Part shown: piece after piece, positions 2,542-53,335 of the stretch
Position numbering within the stretch: position 1 is the first letter of the stretch
Layout: every line of letters starts with the position of its first letter
From: Shewanella sp. UCD-KL12
GTDB taxonomy: Bacteria; Pseudomonadota; Gammaproteobacteria; Enterobacterales; Shewanellaceae
Direction: 5' to 3'
Assembly: GCF_001957125.1 (NCBI RefSeq)
Contig: NZ_MPHJ01000001.1
Location: 420,407 to 484,406 of the forward strand
DNA: 64,000 bases
Translations under genes and position numbers: made by a program
The notes under the pieces: model-generated
The model's input: the letters and a program-made list of their open reading frames with translations, nothing else
Databases searched by the model: none
What the model was told of the DNA's origin: nothing

Positions 2542-4209
2542 ATGATCCATAAAGTACTTTTAATACTCTTTTTTGTTATCGTTCAGGTGTTCCCAAGCCA
2601 GGCTTTATCAGCCACCTCACTCGATCAATCTTTTCTCTTTTTTGCTAAGCCAGAACAGACTCCTCCTGCAAAGCATGCAGATGTCACTCCTTGGATGGCC
2701 ACGTTAGAAAAAGCTGACAGTATTAGCTTAACTGGCGGGAGCTATTGGCTAGTGATGCCTACATTTGTTTATGACAGAGAAACCCGATGGGCTGTTAGTG
2801 TCAGAAATTCAATCGTTGAATCACTTGATTATTGGGTGATCGGGACTGACGGTAGCAAGCAGTATGCTCATAGTGGTTATTATGCCCCCTATGAGTTTCT
2901 GTTTGATTATGGCCGTGAAGTCGAGCTCAATAATGGTGTGGAATATTGGTTAATCGTTAAGATGGAAAGCCGCTATTTCTCTTCGATACCAAAGATTGAG
3001 CTTAATCCCCTAGTAGAGCACAAGCAAAGTGCAGATATTGAAGCGATGGCCGTGATGCTATGTCTTGGTGGACTGATCTTTATCGCTTGCTATAACTTAT
3101 TGATTTTCTTTTCGATTAAAGACCGTGCATTTCTCTATTATGGTATGTATGTACTGTCGTACTTTTTTGGCTGGGCGCTGACTTTTCATATTCCTTCTCA
3201 CTTGTGGGGTTATCATAATTTAGAGCTACACCACCTGTTTTTTATCAGTTTGCCTATATTTAATATTCTGTTTTACAAGCACTTTCTACAGCTTCCTGAA
3301 TACTCACCTAAGCTTTGGCGCCTAAGTAAATATCTCATGTGGCTCTGTATTATCGCCTTGCCAACCAGTATTTATCTGGTCTCTTATACCGCACTGATTG
3401 CCTCCGTCTTAATCATGTTATGGATTGGTCTCGCGATCACCTGTGGTAATGTCTGCCTGATCAAGGGCTTTTCACCGGCGCGTTACTTTATTTTTGCTTT
3501 TACCTGCTTATTACTGCCCGCAGTTATTATTCTTCCGGGCAATCTAGGTTTGACGCCTGACTTTATCGAATATGCAGAGCTCGCCACCTTGGTAGGCGGC
3601 ACTGCCGATGCCTTGCTACTCTCTCTCGCATTAGCCAATAAGATTAAGCTCCTGTCTGAGGAGCGCCAAACCTATATTGAGACACTCGGTATAGCGTGGG
3701 AGAAAGCGCGGCAAGATGATCTTACTCAGTTGCAGAACCGACATGCATTTGATGAATACATGCAAACAGCGTTATTAGGTAAAAATGCTAAGCGTGCACA
3801 GCATCTTATTTTGATTGATATCGATGGTATTACTCAGGTTAATCACACATTGGGACACCAAGAGGGTGACAGCTTACTCAAGTTAGTTGCTAAGCAGTTA
3901 AAGTCGATATGCAGCGACCATGAGCGAGCTAGACTGTTTAGAATTGGCAGTGATAACTTCGTCATTTTGTTATCCGCTGAGCAGACTAAATCGTTAGTGA
4001 ATCAATTAGAACTGCTCTCAAAAAGTCTAGAACAGGAAGGTTATCGTGATACTGGTATCAGTTATGGTTATGCCGTTAACTCTGAAGTGAGGGATGCCAG
4101 TGAATGGCTGAGAACCGCAGATAGAAACATGTATAAGGTTAAGACTGAAAAGCGTCGTGAGAAGCAAGCTCAATCTGTTTCATTAACCGAAAATGAGTTA
4201 TTAAGCTAA
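2542..4209 (+). CDS. 7TMR-DISM membrane receptor with degenerate GGDEF domain
   Basis: Inner-membrane signalling protein of 555 residues. Order: signal peptide (about 1-23), periplasmic 7TMR-DISMED2-type sugar-binding-like domain (about 25-160), seven transmembrane helices (about 168-365), short linker helix, GGDEF domain (about 390-540). The domain has the usual DDLTQLQNRHAF start and DIDGITQVN motif, but the active-site loop reads RIGSDNF (467-473) where active cyclases have R-x-GGDEF. Diguanylate cyclase activity is therefore doubtful; it may be a GTP- or c-di-GMP-binding or partner-regulating domain. The stop codon abuts a MITE-like element. No EAL domain is present. Confidence 0.8.
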   Translation: MIHKVLLILFFVIVQVFPSQALSATSLDQSFLFFAKPEQTPPAKHADVTPWMATLEKADSISLTGGSYWLVMPTFVYDRETRWAVSVRNSIVESLDYWVIGTDGSKQYAHSGYYAPYEFLFDYGREVELNNGVEYWLIVKMESRYFSSIPKIELNPLVEHKQSADIEAMAVMLCLGGLIFIACYNLLIFFSIKDRAFLYYGMYVLSYFFGWALTFHIPSHLWGYHNLELHHLFFISLPIFNILFYKHFLQLPEYSPKLWRLSKYLMWLCIIALPTSIYLVSYTALIASVLIMLWIGLAITCGNVCLIKGFSPARYFIFAFTCLLLPAVIILPGNLGLTPDFIEYAELATLVGGTADALLLSLALANKIKLLSEERQTYIETLGIAWEKARQDDLTQLQNRHAFDEYMQTALLGKNAKRAQHLILIDIDGITQVNHTLGHQEGDSLLKLVAKQLKSICSDHERARLFRIGSDNFVILLSAEQTKSLVNQLELLSKSLEQEGYRDTGISYGYAVNSEVRDASEWLRTADRNMYKVKTEKRREKQAQSVSLTENELLS

Positions 4210-4474
4210 TACCAATCAGTATAAGAAATTGATCTACTCAGAGCTATTTGGGGCAAACTAATTCAAGGCGAATAAGTGATGTAATGGTGATCCCTTATGA
4301 GGTTATTCAACGAAGAAGTAGGCAGCCCCCAAAGCTCCTACAAGGCGAGTTTTAGCGCTTCTGAATGCTGCGTTAACGAGCTTAAACGTAGAATAACTAT
4401 GCTCTTCACTCGTTGCCTTGCCTCAGAAGCGCTAAACTCTCGCTGAGCGAGCAAGTCTTTATACCGATTGGTAT
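4209..4474. mobile_element. MITE-like element, family A copy 1
   Basis: A 266-bp element without a reading frame, bounded by 16-base terminal inverted repeats (ATACCAATCAGTATAA at 4209-4224 against 4459-4474, 15 of 16 matching). A second internal inverted repeat (4345-4364 with 4423-4443) would let the element fold into a long hairpin. A clearly related 265-bp copy lies at 51478-51742. Structure and size fit a non-autonomous miniature transposable element. The left end starts on the last base of the upstream gene's TAA stop codon, so the insertion just spared that gene. No transposase is in the window. Confidence 0.75.
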
Positions 4475-4508
4475 TACACTCCTCTAAGATCTATTTTGAT
4501 GAAAAAAA

Positions 4509-8391: not shown

Positions 8392-9831
8392 TTATGACTT
8401 CTTCATTTTAGCGACGAACATCCCATCGGTATTGGCTTGATTTGGTATCACAGTATGCATAGTGTCCTCAATACCTGTAAAGGGGTGAGTCGTACTGACC
8501 AATTTAAAATCAGTATGTTGCGCTAAAAAGGCATTAACCACATCTTCATTCTCTAAAGGCGACAGTGAGCAAGTTGCATAGACTAATGTACCGCCATCTC
8601 GCACAGCTCGACTCGAACGGCTAAGGATATCTAGCTGCAGAGCAGGTTTGTCATTTACTGAGTTAACAGCATCTATCCAGCGCATATCCGGGTTTCGTCG
8701 CCAAGTCCCAGTACAACTACAGGGAGCATCAACAAGCACGCCATCGAAATGTTTATGCGCAACTGGCAGTTCATCGGATTTCCAAGCAGATGTTGATATG
8801 CCGCTAAACCCTGCCCGCTTTGCGCGTTTTGCGAGTTCTTCAAGGGGTTTTCGGCGCACATCGGAAGCGACTATCGTCCCGTTTGAACGTTTATTTTGGC
8901 GTAACATAAGCGATCTGAGTTGTAGGCTTTTGCCGCCAGCACCACTACAGGTGTCCCACCAGTGTTCATCAGCATGGGGCGCACAAATCTGGCCAACGAC
9001 CTGAGAGCCAAGATCTTGGATCTCAAGTTCTCCTTCACGGTAAAGTGACAGGCCGTTGAGATTGAGACTCTTGTGGCCTAAGTTAATGCTGTCACTAAAG
9101 TAGTCACTGCCTGTCGCGACGATATCCAGCTTCGCTAGCTTCTCAATAGCTTCATCAGTATCAATGTTTTGCACTCTTGCCCAGATAGGTGGGCGTGAAG
9201 ACAGTGCTTCAACCATAGTTAAGCGTTGCTCTGTATTATCAATCTTGCAAGTTTGCCAAAACCACTCTGGCACGAGTTCATCGGTAGTAAAGCGCAAAGC
9301 GGGAAGCTGATGATTGAGCCAATCACATTTTGCCGATACAGAGGCTAAAGCCGTGTCGCTTTCAAGTGCGAGGGCTTGTTCTTTATCTGCAAATCCTGAC
9401 CATGCCGCAATAAAGGCTTCCCACGAGTGGGACTCAAGGCGTGCATTGACTGTCAGCATAGTGAACCAAGCGACTTGATTATCGCAACTCTTACCTTCTG
9501 TGCTGAACTTCTTTAACCAGCCCCACCAACGAAACAGGGCAAACAAGCTCTCGCGGATAACGCGCCTGTCTTTAGAGCCATGTTTCTTATTGACTCTGAA
9601 GTACTCACCTACAACCCGGTCAGCTGGTTGCTTCTTTTCCATCACCTCAGTAAATAGTTGAAGTATGGTATTGGCGTAGCTAAGGGCACGTTTTTGCGCG
9701 GGAGTCTCAGCATTCATAGCATCAAATGAGCTAGCTTTAAGCTCGTTTAAAAATGCCACGCTTGTGAGATGGTCATTAACCGTTGAGTCAGTCGTTTGTT
9801 CTGCTTGGCTTGTGTTCAAGGCGTTGCCCAT
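8392..9831 (-). CDS. RsmB/NOP-family rRNA cytosine-C5 methyltransferase
   Basis: SAM-dependent RNA m5C methyltransferase of the RsmB/Nol1-Nop2-Sun family, 479 residues. The SAM-binding loop is DTCSGAGGKS (293-302); the two conserved cysteines are in VDAPCSCTGTWRRN (Cys371) and YATCSLSPLENED (Cys421), the releasing and catalytic pair of this family. The N-terminal helical part (about 45-200) resembles the NusB-like domain of RsmB but is diverged, so this is probably an RsmB-like paralogue and the exact target cytosine is unclear. The start is uncertain: the ATG at 9831 has a poor ribosome-binding site and an internal ATG at 9717 is possible. Confidence 0.85.
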   Translation of the reverse strand: MGNALNTSQAEQTTDSTVNDHLTSVAFLNELKASSFDAMNAETPAQKRALSYANTILQLFTEVMEKKQPADRVVGEYFRVNKKHGSKDRRVIRESLFALFRWWGWLKKFSTEGKSCDNQVAWFTMLTVNARLESHSWEAFIAAWSGFADKEQALALESDTALASVSAKCDWLNHQLPALRFTTDELVPEWFWQTCKIDNTEQRLTMVEALSSRPPIWARVQNIDTDEAIEKLAKLDIVATGSDYFSDSINLGHKSLNLNGLSLYREGELEIQDLGSQVVGQICAPHADEHWWDTCSGAGGKSLQLRSLMLRQNKRSNGTIVASDVRRKPLEELAKRAKRAGFSGISTSAWKSDELPVAHKHFDGVLVDAPCSCTGTWRRNPDMRWIDAVNSVNDKPALQLDILSRSSRAVRDGGTLVYATCSLSPLENEDVVNAFLAQHTDFKLVSTTHPFTGIEDTMHTVIPNQANTDGMFVAKMKKS

Positions 9832-45325: not shown

Positions 45326-45411
45326 TGCTGTGAATTACTTGATTGAGTTCGATACTATTGGTTTTGCTCTGTTGTATCATTGCTATAGAACACCGACGCT
45401 GAGAACATCTA

Positions 45412-46086
45412 ATGCAACTAAAACCTCTGTCTAAGGGCCGCTTTCAATCACTTTGGGAGCAGGAGCATGATGACATTGAACAGATCATGCTTGAGTGCAT
45501 TAGTGAAACTAAGCTGGTACCAGCTCATCAAAAATTGATGCAGCAAGGTCAGAAAGTGGATGAGCTCATTTTAGTGAAACAGGGCCGGATCGCTATGGGC
45601 TATACCGCCCGTAATGGGCGTTGTTTTCAATTAGGCACTATGATGTGTGACTCACAGCTCTTCGGGGAGATGGAGTTTTTCAGTGATTATCGATGCCAGC
45701 TCGATATCATTGCCGAGGATGAGGTGGAAGTTGAGATTATCTGTGGTGATAAGCTACAACAGGCACTGACTAAAAAGCCGATGTTTGCGCTGTTTTTTGC
45801 CAGTGCCATCGCGGTTGATTATCAAGATACCGTCGATATTCTAACGCGCAGAATGCTCTACCCGATTGCTTACAACATCGCATATGACCTCTATCATCAG
45901 TACCTCAATGATCTGCCTGTGGATGGCTTTAGTAAGTGCTACTTAGAAGCTGAGCGATTCGCGACGACAGATCGTGTGTATCGCCGAGCGGTAAAGAAGC
46001 TTGAGGAGTTAGGCTTAATTCAAAAGGATAAAGAGGAGGGGATCATTATCCGCGATCTTGAAGGGCTCAAAGCCTATATTGAATAA
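45412..46086 (+). CDS. Crp/Fnr-family regulator (YeiL-like)
   Basis: A 224-residue protein with a cyclic-nucleotide-binding-like beta barrel (about 20-120) and a C-terminal winged helix (about 145-215: FATTDRVYRRAVKKLEELGLI). Length and pattern resemble E. coli YeiL. There is no N-terminal four-cysteine cluster of the FNR kind, though several cysteines (28, 65, 73, 95, 111) are present. Single gene, 86 bases after the AraC-type gene. The ligand and regulon are unknown. Confidence 0.75.
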   Translation: MQLKPLSKGRFQSLWEQEHDDIEQIMLECISETKLVPAHQKLMQQGQKVDELILVKQGRIAMGYTARNGRCFQLGTMMCDSQLFGEMEFFSDYRCQLDIIAEDEVEVEIICGDKLQQALTKKPMFALFFASAIAVDYQDTVDILTRRMLYPIAYNIAYDLYHQYLNDLPVDGFSKCYLEAERFATTDRVYRRAVKKLEELGLIQKDKEEGIIIRDLEGLKAYIE

Positions 46087-51477: not shown

Positions 51478-51742
51478 ATACCAATCAGTATAAGAAAGTG
51501 ATCTACTCAGAGTGCTTTTTGGCAACTAATTCAAGGCGAATAGCTGATGGAATGGTTATTCCCTTGTGAAGCTATTCAACGAAGAAGTAGGCGGCCAAAA
51601 ACACTCCTAAAAGGCGAGTTTTAGCGCGTCAGATGCTGTGTTAACGAGCTAGAACGTAGAATGACTATGCTCTTCACTCGTTGCCTTGCTTCTGCAGCGC
51701 TAAACTCTCGCTGAGCGACCACATCTTTATACTGTTTGGTAT
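51478..51742. mobile_element. MITE-like element, family A copy 2
   Basis: A 265-bp element closely related along its whole length to 4209-4474. Terminal inverted repeats are 51478-51493 and 51727-51742 (14 of 16 matching), and the internal GCGAGTTTTAGCGC / GCGCTAAACTCTCGC inverted repeat is retained. Both copies lack a reading frame. Presence of two copies 47 kb apart supports mobility. Confidence 0.75.
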
Positions 51743-51892
51743 TACCCTAAGTTTCAAAGCCTATTCCTACTCTTATTATGAGCCTGTACAGGCTTACTGA
51801 GATAAGGAAAAAGGGGAGAGTATCCTAATTGGGGAGATCTGAAAGTCGTGTTTGAATAACGAGTTTAAATCGTGTGTTAAAAGCTGTAAGAA

Positions 51893-51923
51893 AAAAGCCC
51901 TGGTGTTTGAATTACCAGGGCTT
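51893..51923 (-). terminator. Terminator of the 46-codon basic peptide gene
   Basis: A 10-bp stem AAGCCCTGGT/ACCAGGGCTT; on the minus strand it is followed by six U. It lies 15 bases past the stop codon of the basic peptide frame, giving that frame its own transcript end. Confidence 0.85.
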
Positions 51924-51937
51924 CATATAATGTGGGC

Positions 51938-52078
51938 TTATCTTTTTTGTAGGTTTAAGCTTCGCTGTTTCTCATCTTGTTGACTGGCCTTCATCATCAA
52001 CAAACTGATCCTCTTCGCTCGTCTCATCCTAATCTTACGTACTCTCGTTTTAACTCTAATCGTTCTAGGTTTACGCAT
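51938..52078 (-). CDS. Very basic 46-residue protein
   Basis: ATG at 52078, TAA at 51938. The peptide (MRKPRTIRVKTRVRKIRMRR at its start, ending SLNLQKR) has about 18 Arg/Lys and only two acidic residues. It has its own promoter (TATAAT at 52123-52128) and intrinsic terminator (51893-51923), which supports a real transcription unit. The ribosome-binding site is weak (AGAGATAAG). Composition is like small ribosome-associated or nucleic-acid-binding proteins, but I do not recognise a family. A non-coding RNA is the alternative. Confidence 0.5.
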   Translation of the reverse strand: MRKPRTIRVKTRVRKIRMRRAKRISLLMMKASQQDEKQRSLNLQKR

Positions 52079-52122
52079 GGCAGTTGCTTATCTCTGTCAT
52101 TGTTAAAATTAAAGTTGCCCGC

Positions 52123-52151
52123 ATTATACGTTTTTTTTATGGTTAAATTAA
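52123..52151 (-). promoter_or_regulatory. Strong promoter with GC-rich discriminator
   Basis: On the minus strand TTAATT, 17 bases, TATAAT, followed by GCGGGC. The perfect -10 and GC-rich discriminator resemble stable-RNA promoters under stringent control. The -35 overlaps the stop codon of the MFS gene upstream. Confidence 0.6.
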
Positions 52152-53335
52152 GCTGTAGCTAAACTGTTTTCTGCAGTTTGGCGACGAGATATCACTAACA
52201 TGGCTAAAATAATGGCGTAAATAACTGGTATTGCATACATTACCGTTTGTAAGCCAATAATAGATTCAAACATTGAGCTGATGGCTGGACTGAACATTGC
52301 GCCAGCGCTACCACTGATAAGAATATAAGAGACATTCTTACTGCTTGCCTGTTTCACAAAAGATACGCCGTAGGCGATAAAGGCGTTGTACAAGGCCGCA
52401 CAGGCAAAGCCGTAACCGTAAGTCAGGTAACCCATCCACTCAAGCTTATCTGTTGTGACAATTAGACTCGTGATAATAAATGCAAGAGCCATCATTCCCA
52501 TCAAGAAGTGCTGGATCTTAACCCTTGATACGATAACGGTAGAGATGAGCGCTCCAACGAGAGCGGCTGACCAGTATTGAGTAATGATGTTGCCAGCTTC
52601 TTCAAATGGAATATCAAATTTCTCTTTAACGAACATTGGTGCCCAAGTGAGGAAGGTATACAGGGCTAGCATGCCCAGAAACAGACCAATACCAGCACTG
52701 ATAATAGAGAAGTTCCACTCAGATTTTTCTGCGCTTAAATCACCCTTGTCAGCTGATTTTTCACCCTGTCTGTCACAAAGGTCAAAGTTAGTCATTAGTG
52801 CCATCATAGCGGTACCTAATGCCACTAAGCCTACGGCTAAGTAACTATAGCTCCATGACAGTGCATTGCTTAAAGCGTAAGTAGTGATAAGCGGGAAAAC
52901 GACACCTGCCACATTAAAGGTAGCGTCTTGAACCACTAGCATGGTGCTCTGAATTTTGTCTTTCCATACCGATACTACAATCGTACCCGCAATACACAGA
53001 CCAATACCACCGCATAGACCGATAACAGTCATGGCCATCATCACCACGCTGAGTGATGAGGTAAAGTGCAGGGCTGCAGCGCTCAGCGCAATACTTATGT
53101 AACTCAGTAGCGTAATACGTTTAACCCCTATCTTCTCAATTAAGAAGAAGGCGGCGATAGTACCTGCGAGCGCACCACCGTTTAAGAGGGAGAAGATTGA
53201 AGCGACTTCATTGACGTTAGCTGCGAACTTTTCGGCGATGGGCTCTATTAGCATGCCGAACTGAGTGGCAAAGCCTGCCATGATAAAGTTGGCGAGGAAG
53301 CTTAAAATCGTTAAGGATATTTTGTTTTTCATCAT
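52148..53335 (-). CDS. TsgA-like MFS transporter
   Basis: Inner-membrane MFS protein of 395 residues with 12 hydrophobic segments. The start (LTILSFLANFIMAGFATQFGMLIEPIAEKFA) and the SIFSLLNGGALAGTI segment resemble TsgA-type transporters of unknown substrate. It is followed upstream, 142 bases away, by deoD on the same strand, so a nucleoside-related role is possible but unproven. Confidence 0.75.
   Translation of the reverse strand: MMKNKISLTILSFLANFIMAGFATQFGMLIEPIAEKFAANVNEVASIFSLLNGGALAGTIAAFFLIEKIGVKRITLLSYISIALSAAALHFTSSLSVVMMAMTVIGLCGGIGLCIAGTIVVSVWKDKIQSTMLVVQDATFNVAGVVFPLITTYALSNALSWSYSYLAVGLVALGTAMMALMTNFDLCDRQGEKSADKGDLSAEKSEWNFSIISAGIGLFLGMLALYTFLTWAPMFVKEKFDIPFEEAGNIITQYWSAALVGALISTVIVSRVKIQHFLMGMMALAFIITSLIVTTDKLEWMGYLTYGYGFACAALYNAFIAYGVSFVKQASSKNVSYILISGSAGAMFSPAISSMFESIIGLQTVMYAIPVIYAIILAMLVISRRQTAENSLATA

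What the first reader, a model, noticed from the sequence alone, without database searches (positions are those of the whole stretch)
51893..52151. Autonomous transcription unit for a 46-residue very basic protein
Between a MITE copy and an MFS gene lies a complete small unit: promoter with perfect TATAAT and GC-rich discriminator, a 46-codon frame with about 18 Arg/Lys, and a strong terminator 15 bases after the stop. The promoter type is like those of stable RNA and ribosomal genes. It could be an undescribed ribosome-associated protein or an RNA gene.
Basis: partly seen in the sequence, partly recalled or inferred. Interest (0 to 1): 0.55.

Follow-up and report, generated by a model that had tools for sequence, protein, structure and literature searches.

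The report
Tiny arginine-rich protein of Shewanella clade
A 46-residue, strongly basic protein gene with its own promoter and terminator is real and preserved by selection in one branch of Shewanella bacteria, matches no known family searched, and probably binds RNA, although that has not been shown.

Summary
Window 52078-51938 (minus strand) is a 46-codon frame with 11 Arg and 7 Lys, a TATAAT box 44 nt upstream and a hairpin terminator 13 nt after the stop. Relatives occur in 15 of 129 genomes of the genus (14 full-length, one cut after codon 32), each beside a tsgA-type transporter gene or its remnant. No significant relative was found outside these 15 in the family, order and class genomes searched, or in phage, plasmid and viral records. 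Selection acts on the protein: pN/pS is 0.25, codons 1-38 carry no indels, and upstream indels break the frame. Two genomes keep the gene after losing the transporter. 32 other transporter loci examined lack it, so it was probably gained once. An RNA gene is disfavoured: only the terminator folds consistently. A ribosomal-protein-like role is disfavoured too: its Arg codons are mostly AGA/AGG/CGA, where ribosomal genes use CGT/CGC. Best reading: a lineage-restricted small protein acting as a basic helical RNA-binding peptide, comparable in working to DUF1127 proteins but not a member. Coding status is well supported; function is inference.

The parts
51938..52078 (-). small protein gene, 46 codons plus stop
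   Evidence: relatives in 15 of 129 genus genomes; purifying selection on the protein
52123..52128 (-). -10 box TATAAT, followed by GCGGGC
   Evidence: exact in 13 of 15 loci; the best -35 is weak (3-4 of 6) in all 15
52079..52122 (-). discriminator and untranslated leader, with a recurring AACTTTAAT...AATGACAG...AACTGCC stretch
   Evidence: indels between loci shift the frame, so it is not read in frame with the gene
51894..51924 (-). intrinsic terminator hairpin (11 pairs, loop 9) running into a T-run
   Evidence: 72 nt after the stop: -17.9 kcal/mol, z -4.0 here; a hairpin in 15 of 15 loci
52148..53335 (-). upstream neighbour: TsgA-type MFS transporter (context, not part of the unit)
   Evidence: reduced to 17-23 aligned residues in two genomes that keep the small gene
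51478..51748 (.). MITE copy downstream (context)
   Evidence: second copy at 4209-4480, 86% identity

Best explanation
A genuine, autonomous protein-coding gene, probably gained once in the ancestor of one Shewanella clade, between a tsgA-type transporter gene and a convergent CRP-like regulator gene. Its product is a very basic peptide (net charge +10 to +16) of 46-52 residues, predicted to be a single helix, whose first ~32 residues are the constrained core. Shown here: the unit's anatomy, its conservation, the coding constraint, the single-clade distribution and independence from the transporter. Inferred: that the peptide acts by binding nucleic acid, most likely RNA, through arginines spread around the helix, at modest expression, as a small post-transcriptional or RNA-metabolism accessory rather than a structural ribosomal protein. 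The GC-rich discriminator would allow growth-rate or stringent control (recalled knowledge, untested).
For: Coding: mean pN 0.133 against pS 0.530, with pN<pS in 103 of 105 pairs; the two shifted frames of the same strand show pN above pS. Among 14 full-length rows, variable columns are 17/13/29 by codon position. 0 of 14 rows have a stop, against a mean of 13.2 after column shuffling, and amino-acid identity is 0.762 against a shuffled maximum of 0.664 (500 shuffles). Leader indels break the frame upstream, while codons 1-38 carry none in 15 loci. Independence: S. hanedai (G041/L104) and MAG DT_112 (G094/L101) keep the gene with only 23 and 17 aligned residues of transporter left and no deoD match in the ~8-9 kb held. 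One origin: the 13 transporter genes with the small gene form one side of a branch, support 100/100, in a tree of 30 of the 50. Mode: AlphaFold2 on 8 sequences gives a helix over residues 4-45, mean pLDDT 84.7. The hydrophobic moment is not above shuffles (p 0.16-0.69, 10 sequences), so there is no sign of a membrane-active face; the charge pattern suits an arginine-rich RNA binder.
Against: No transcript, peptide or RNA-binding data. A lone predicted helix is weak evidence for any function; pTM is 0.50. Codon use suggests low expression. Three genomes near the clade by marker identity (G123, G015, G095) lack the gene together with the transporter and the CRP-like gene, and G117 has it cut after codon 32, so it is dispensable. 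Leader plus CDS has mean z -1.2, so some RNA structure is not excluded.
Confidence: 0.5

Rival explanations
1. Coding gene whose peptide works by binding a protein partner (for example a kinase, nuclease, RNA polymerase or transporter) rather than RNA.
For: Small DUF1127 proteins of Agrobacterium act through the sensor kinase PhoR (PMC12501420, seen as title and start of abstract). The helix has a conserved LLM patch at 26-28.
Against: Five of the fully invariant residues in 15 loci are arginines (R2, R5, R12, R19, R20). It persists without its transporter neighbour.
Confidence: 0.25
2. Ribosome-bound or ribosomal-type protein.
For: Size, charge and GC-rich discriminator.
Against: No Pfam or NCBIfam ribosomal family matches; the best PDB profile hits, uL29/L35, have E 0.16. 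Arg codons other than CGT/CGC are 9 of 11 here and 123 of 146 over 15 loci, against 7 of 107 in frames of at least 60 codons in the ribosomal-protein locus around rpsC, one of those frames spurious, and 42% in 40 window ORFs. Not found in 114 of 129 genus genomes.
Confidence: 0.12
3. RNA gene or dual-function small RNA, the frame being incidental or secondary.
For: A short autonomous unit with a strong terminator and a recurring leader stretch. Leader plus CDS has mean z -1.2, with 5 of 15 loci at or below -2.
Against: Codon-phase constraint; no fold outside the terminator that is stable across loci; no Rfam match in the whole window at gathering scores.
Confidence: 0.08
4. Leader-peptide attenuator sensing arginine or tRNA-Arg charging.
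For: Arg-rich frame with uncommon Arg codons just before a terminator.
Against: No adjacent downstream gene in the same direction to control: a full CRP-like gene converges on the unit in 13 of 15 loci, is decayed in S. hanedai and has moved away in the window. The peptide is conserved at amino-acid level.
Confidence: 0.04

Closest known systems
DUF1127 small proteins (CcaF1 of Rhodobacter, YjiS of Salmonella, Agrobacterium small DUFs)
   Same: Arginine-rich, often under 50 aa (PMC12501420, start of abstract). CcaF1 binds RNA, and this was associated with its arginines (passages of PMC11707872).
   Different: No DIGL motif, no DUF1127 match for any of 12 relatives, and no DUF1127 match in this genome. 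Found here only in one Shewanella clade.
Lineage-restricted (orphan) small bacterial genes such as laoB and ano of E. coli O157:H7
   Same: Short, lineage-restricted protein-coding genes (search listing and abstract starts only).
   Different: Those overlap older genes. This one stands alone with its own promoter and terminator and is kept in 15 genomes, each of a different species in the collection used.
Small ribosomal and ribosome-associated proteins (bL34, bL36, Sra; recalled)
   Same: Size and charge.
   Different: No family match and opposite codon use.
Arginine-rich RNA-binding helices such as phage lambda N (recalled)
   Same: A short basic helix with arginines spread around it.
   Different: No sequence relation found; PHROGs best E 0.11.

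Membership tests
DUF1127 (PF06568) | match to the Pfam profile | tested here: not met
   0 of 12 relatives match it at E<=10 (HMMER filters drop most weak matches); 0 matches in the window's genome at E<=0.01, while E. coli rings among the 14 controls
DUF1127 (PF06568) | conserved DIGL motif | tested here: not met
   absent from the 12 aligned relatives; motif named in PMC11707872
Ribosomal proteins | match to a Pfam or NCBIfam ribosomal family | tested here: not met
   PDB profile search best E 0.16
Ribosomal proteins | codon usage of highly expressed genes | tested here: not met
Ribosome-associated proteins | physical association with ribosomes | not testable with these tools
   needs polysome or subunit fractionation
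Known RNA families (Rfam 15) | covariance-model match at gathering score | tested here: not met
   0 matches in the window
Structured non-coding RNA | conserved fold beyond the terminator | tested here: inconclusive
   leader+CDS z from -4.2 to +0.9 over 15 loci, mean -1.2, at or below -2 in 5 of 15; no covariation test was run
Protein-coding small gene | purifying selection in one frame | tested here: met
Protein-coding small gene | translation product detected | not testable with these tools
   no ribosome profiling or proteomic data on hand
Arginine-rich RNA-binding peptides | RNA binding | not testable with these tools
   inferred from composition and predicted helix only

The most novel reading that the evidence does not exclude
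The gene arose de novo from non-genic DNA between a transporter's stop codon and the convergent regulator, acquired a complete transcription unit, and became a conserved clade-specific RNA-binding regulator. Its persistent use of uncommon arginine codons would be a kept feature that ties its synthesis to the supply of AGA/AGG-reading tRNA.
Probability: 0.15. Interest if true: 0.6.

Novelty: new member of a known kind. Interest (0 to 1): 0.38.

Why it matters
It appears to be an undescribed small-protein family: no description turned up in the paper searches, which cover only the held open-access library. The site is empty in related lineages, the transcription unit is complete, and two genomes lost the neighbouring transporter but kept the gene. 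That makes it a tractable case for how a small basic protein gene is gained and retained in bacteria. If RNA binding is confirmed, it would be a clade-specific RNA-binding protein outside the families searched here.

Tried and rejected
Family look-ups: Pfam, NCBIfam and PHROGs for 12 relatives and PDB gave only weak hits, each Pfam, NCBIfam or PHROGs family matched by one member (best E 0.06 NCBIfam, 0.11 PHROGs, 0.23 Pfam; PDB profile 0.16). PADLOC was not searched. Phages and plasmids by tblastn gave no match at E<=10; viral contigs had 45 pattern matches and none confirmed. Weak genome hits elsewhere were judged chance: best outside the 15 is E 0.0028 (G139) among 152 family genomes and E 0.0014 (G164) among 394 order genomes. 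A 25-base DNA match in G037 and G046 (E 3e-4) lies in unrelated sequence with no extended frame in common. The attenuator idea was rejected for lack of a downstream co-directional gene. The membrane-active peptide idea was weakened by the non-significant hydrophobic moment. An upstream start was rejected because the distance from the leader's ATGACAG-like motif to the start codon is 21, 22, 23 or 25 nt in different loci (counted by hand), covering all three frames. Antisense frames: one shares the third-position pattern but has a stop in every row; another is open in 12 of 15 rows but shows no constraint, pS 0.237 and pN 0.208. Paper searches for a described Shewanella gene of this kind or transcript data in carriers found none (listings only, plus passages of PMC11707872 and PMC11796252). 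The S. piezotolerans WP3 small-RNA paper (PMC5471319, listing only) was not read, and whether that strain carries the gene was not tested by name. Fold search was not run because a single helix would give uninformative matches.

Full report
WHAT IS THERE. On the minus strand, downstream of the transporter gene at 52148-53335, the sequence reads: TATAAT (52128-52123), GCGGGC, a short leader, ATG at 52078, 46 codons, TAA ending at 51938, and a hairpin at 51924-51894 running into T's. The protein is MRKPRTIRVKTRVRKIRMRRAKRISLLMMKASQQDEKQRSLNLQKR: 11 Arg, 7 Lys, 2 acidic residues, pI 12.0. The -35 is poor (3 of 6), and a consensus scan lists neither promoter nor terminator here. No Rfam family matches in the window at gathering scores.

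DISTRIBUTION. The protein is found in 15 of 129 genomes of the genus, at E 4.1e-12 or better. The same 15 are the only strong ones (E<=3.7e-22 with the profile) of 152 family genomes; the next is E 0.0028. In 394 order genomes the strong hits are two of these same 15 (G000, G028), and the best other is E 0.0014. In 369 class genomes the window's own is the only match at E<=0.001. Named carriers from the GTDB contig collection, 8 loci confirmed of 32 candidates, are S. nanhaiensis, S. atlantica, S. canadensis, S. benthica, S. hanedai and three MAG or uncultured genomes; contig lengths equate these with eight of the 15 G handles. Phages, plasmids and viral contigs have none. No second copy was found in the window's genome by protein or DNA (next best E 1.3).

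CODING SIGNAL. Over codons 2-38 of 15 loci, pN averages 0.133 and pS 0.530, with pN<pS in 103 of 105 pairs. In the two shifted frames of the same strand pN exceeds pS and each row has 2-7 stops. Of the antisense frames, one shares the third-position pattern, as expected by symmetry, but has a stop in every row. One is open in 12 of 15 rows yet shows no constraint, pS 0.237 and pN 0.208. The third shows pN above pS and stops in every row. Among 14 full-length rows, 17, 13 and 29 of 37 columns vary at codon positions 1, 2 and 3. No row has a stop, against a mean of 13.2 rows (minimum 1) in 500 column shuffles, and amino-acid identity is 0.762 against a shuffled maximum of 0.664. Codons 1-38 carry no indel in 15 loci, whereas leader indels put the upstream ATGACAG-like motif in all three frames (hand count). 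G117 has stops at codons 33 and 38 but keeps codons 2-32 constrained (against L014 pS 0.62, pN 0.08). Whether that shortened form still works is open.

RNA ALTERNATIVE. The 72 nt after the stop fold stably in all 15 loci (z -2.1 to -7.6), but leader plus CDS has z from -4.2 to +0.9, mean -1.2, at or below -2 in 5 of 15. No covariation test was run. The leader does recur (AACTTTAAT...AATGACAG...AACTGCC in the main group), which may reflect translation or regulation; its role is unexplained.

CONTEXT AND AGE. The usual order is deoD-type purine nucleoside phosphorylase, TsgA-type MFS transporter, this gene, then a convergent CRP-like regulator. In the 15 loci the transporter is full-length in 13 and the CRP-like gene in 13. 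The transporter is in 50 of 129 genomes at E<=1e-60. I looked at 32 of the 37 such loci that lack the small gene: 17 by eye and 15 by tblastn. None has a relative; two show only a 9-residue match (E 0.04) inside the regulator gene. In 14 of the 15 the convergent regulator follows; the gap is wide (over 300 nt) in L152. In a tree of 30 of the 50 transporter genes the 13 with the small gene form one group, 100/100. One gain is simplest; repeated loss is not excluded. By identity to a window ORF at 8392-9831 (an RNA methyltransferase by eye, not tested), 18 genomes stand nearest (67% or more; the next is 64%). Fifteen have the gene. G123, G015 and G095 lack it, and also the transporter at 1e-60 and the CRP-like gene at 1e-30, so they seem to have lost the whole locus. 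G095, at 67%, may lie outside the clade. S. hanedai and MAG DT_112 have lost nearly all of the transporter and any deoD match beside the gene, yet keep the gene full-length, so it is not an appendage of the transporter.

HOW IT MIGHT WORK. AlphaFold2 on 8 sequences gives one helix, residues 4-45 (mean pLDDT 84.7, pTM 0.50). The hydrophobic moment is not above shuffles in any of 10 sequences tested, which argues against a membrane-active amphipathic peptide. A highly basic, non-amphipathic helix with invariant arginines (R2, R5, R12, R19, R20) most resembles RNA-binding arginine-rich peptides; this is inference. Arg codon choice argues against a ribosomal-protein-like gene: 9 of 11 here, and 123 of 146 over 15 loci, are not CGT/CGC, against 7 of 107 in the ribosomal-protein locus around rpsC (one counted frame being spurious) and 42% in 40 window ORFs. 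Taking one locus from each of five groups, the excess over the window's 42% has p 0.0004-0.018. It may come from an A-rich origin, from low expression or from selection; I cannot separate these. The GC-rich discriminator (12 of 13 loci with TATAAT have at least 4 of 6 G/C; the loci are related, so this is not 12 independent cases) keeps open a growth-rate or stringent type of control.

KNOWN RELATIVES. The nearest functional comparison is the DUF1127 small proteins. CcaF1 binds RNA, associated with its arginines, while for YjiS no evidence of RNA association was found (passages of PMC11707872), so composition alone does not settle function. Membership is not met. sORFdb (PMC11796252, passages) clusters small proteins of up to 50 aa into 8,884 families; I could not search it, so the family may already be listed there without a function.

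VERDICT. A real, selected, lineage-restricted small protein gene: well supported (about 0.95). RNA binding as its mode: about 0.5. Ordinary in kind, apparently new as a family, and worth a tagged-protein test.

Noticed in passing
51478-51748 and 4209-4480: Two copies of a ~271-bp MITE-like repeat, 86% identical, with ACCAATCrGTAT-type ends (3 matches in the window, 0.26 expected, all at these copies).
   Followed up: partly
45409-46083 (+) and 51790-51859 (+): The CRP-like gene that adjoins the small gene elsewhere is intact about 5.8 kb away in this window. A possible decayed copy of its 3' end lies beside the small gene's terminator: local score 38, no shuffle control for that exact pair; against relatives' copies the scores stayed within the shuffled range.
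   Followed up: partly
L103:4001-4141 (G117): The small gene has two in-frame stops in its variable tail while the first 32 codons stay intact and constrained.
   Followed up: partly
L104 and L113 (S. hanedai): The CRP-like gene is decayed into fragments and the transporter is reduced to 23 aligned residues beside an intact small gene.
   Followed up: yes
L004-L008, L014 promoter region: A taCCaATcGGTAt-like palindrome, resembling the ends of the window's MITE, overlaps or touches the -10 box (L006-L008, L014) or sits just after it (L004, L005), suggesting mobile-element material in the promoter (sequences).
   Followed up: partly
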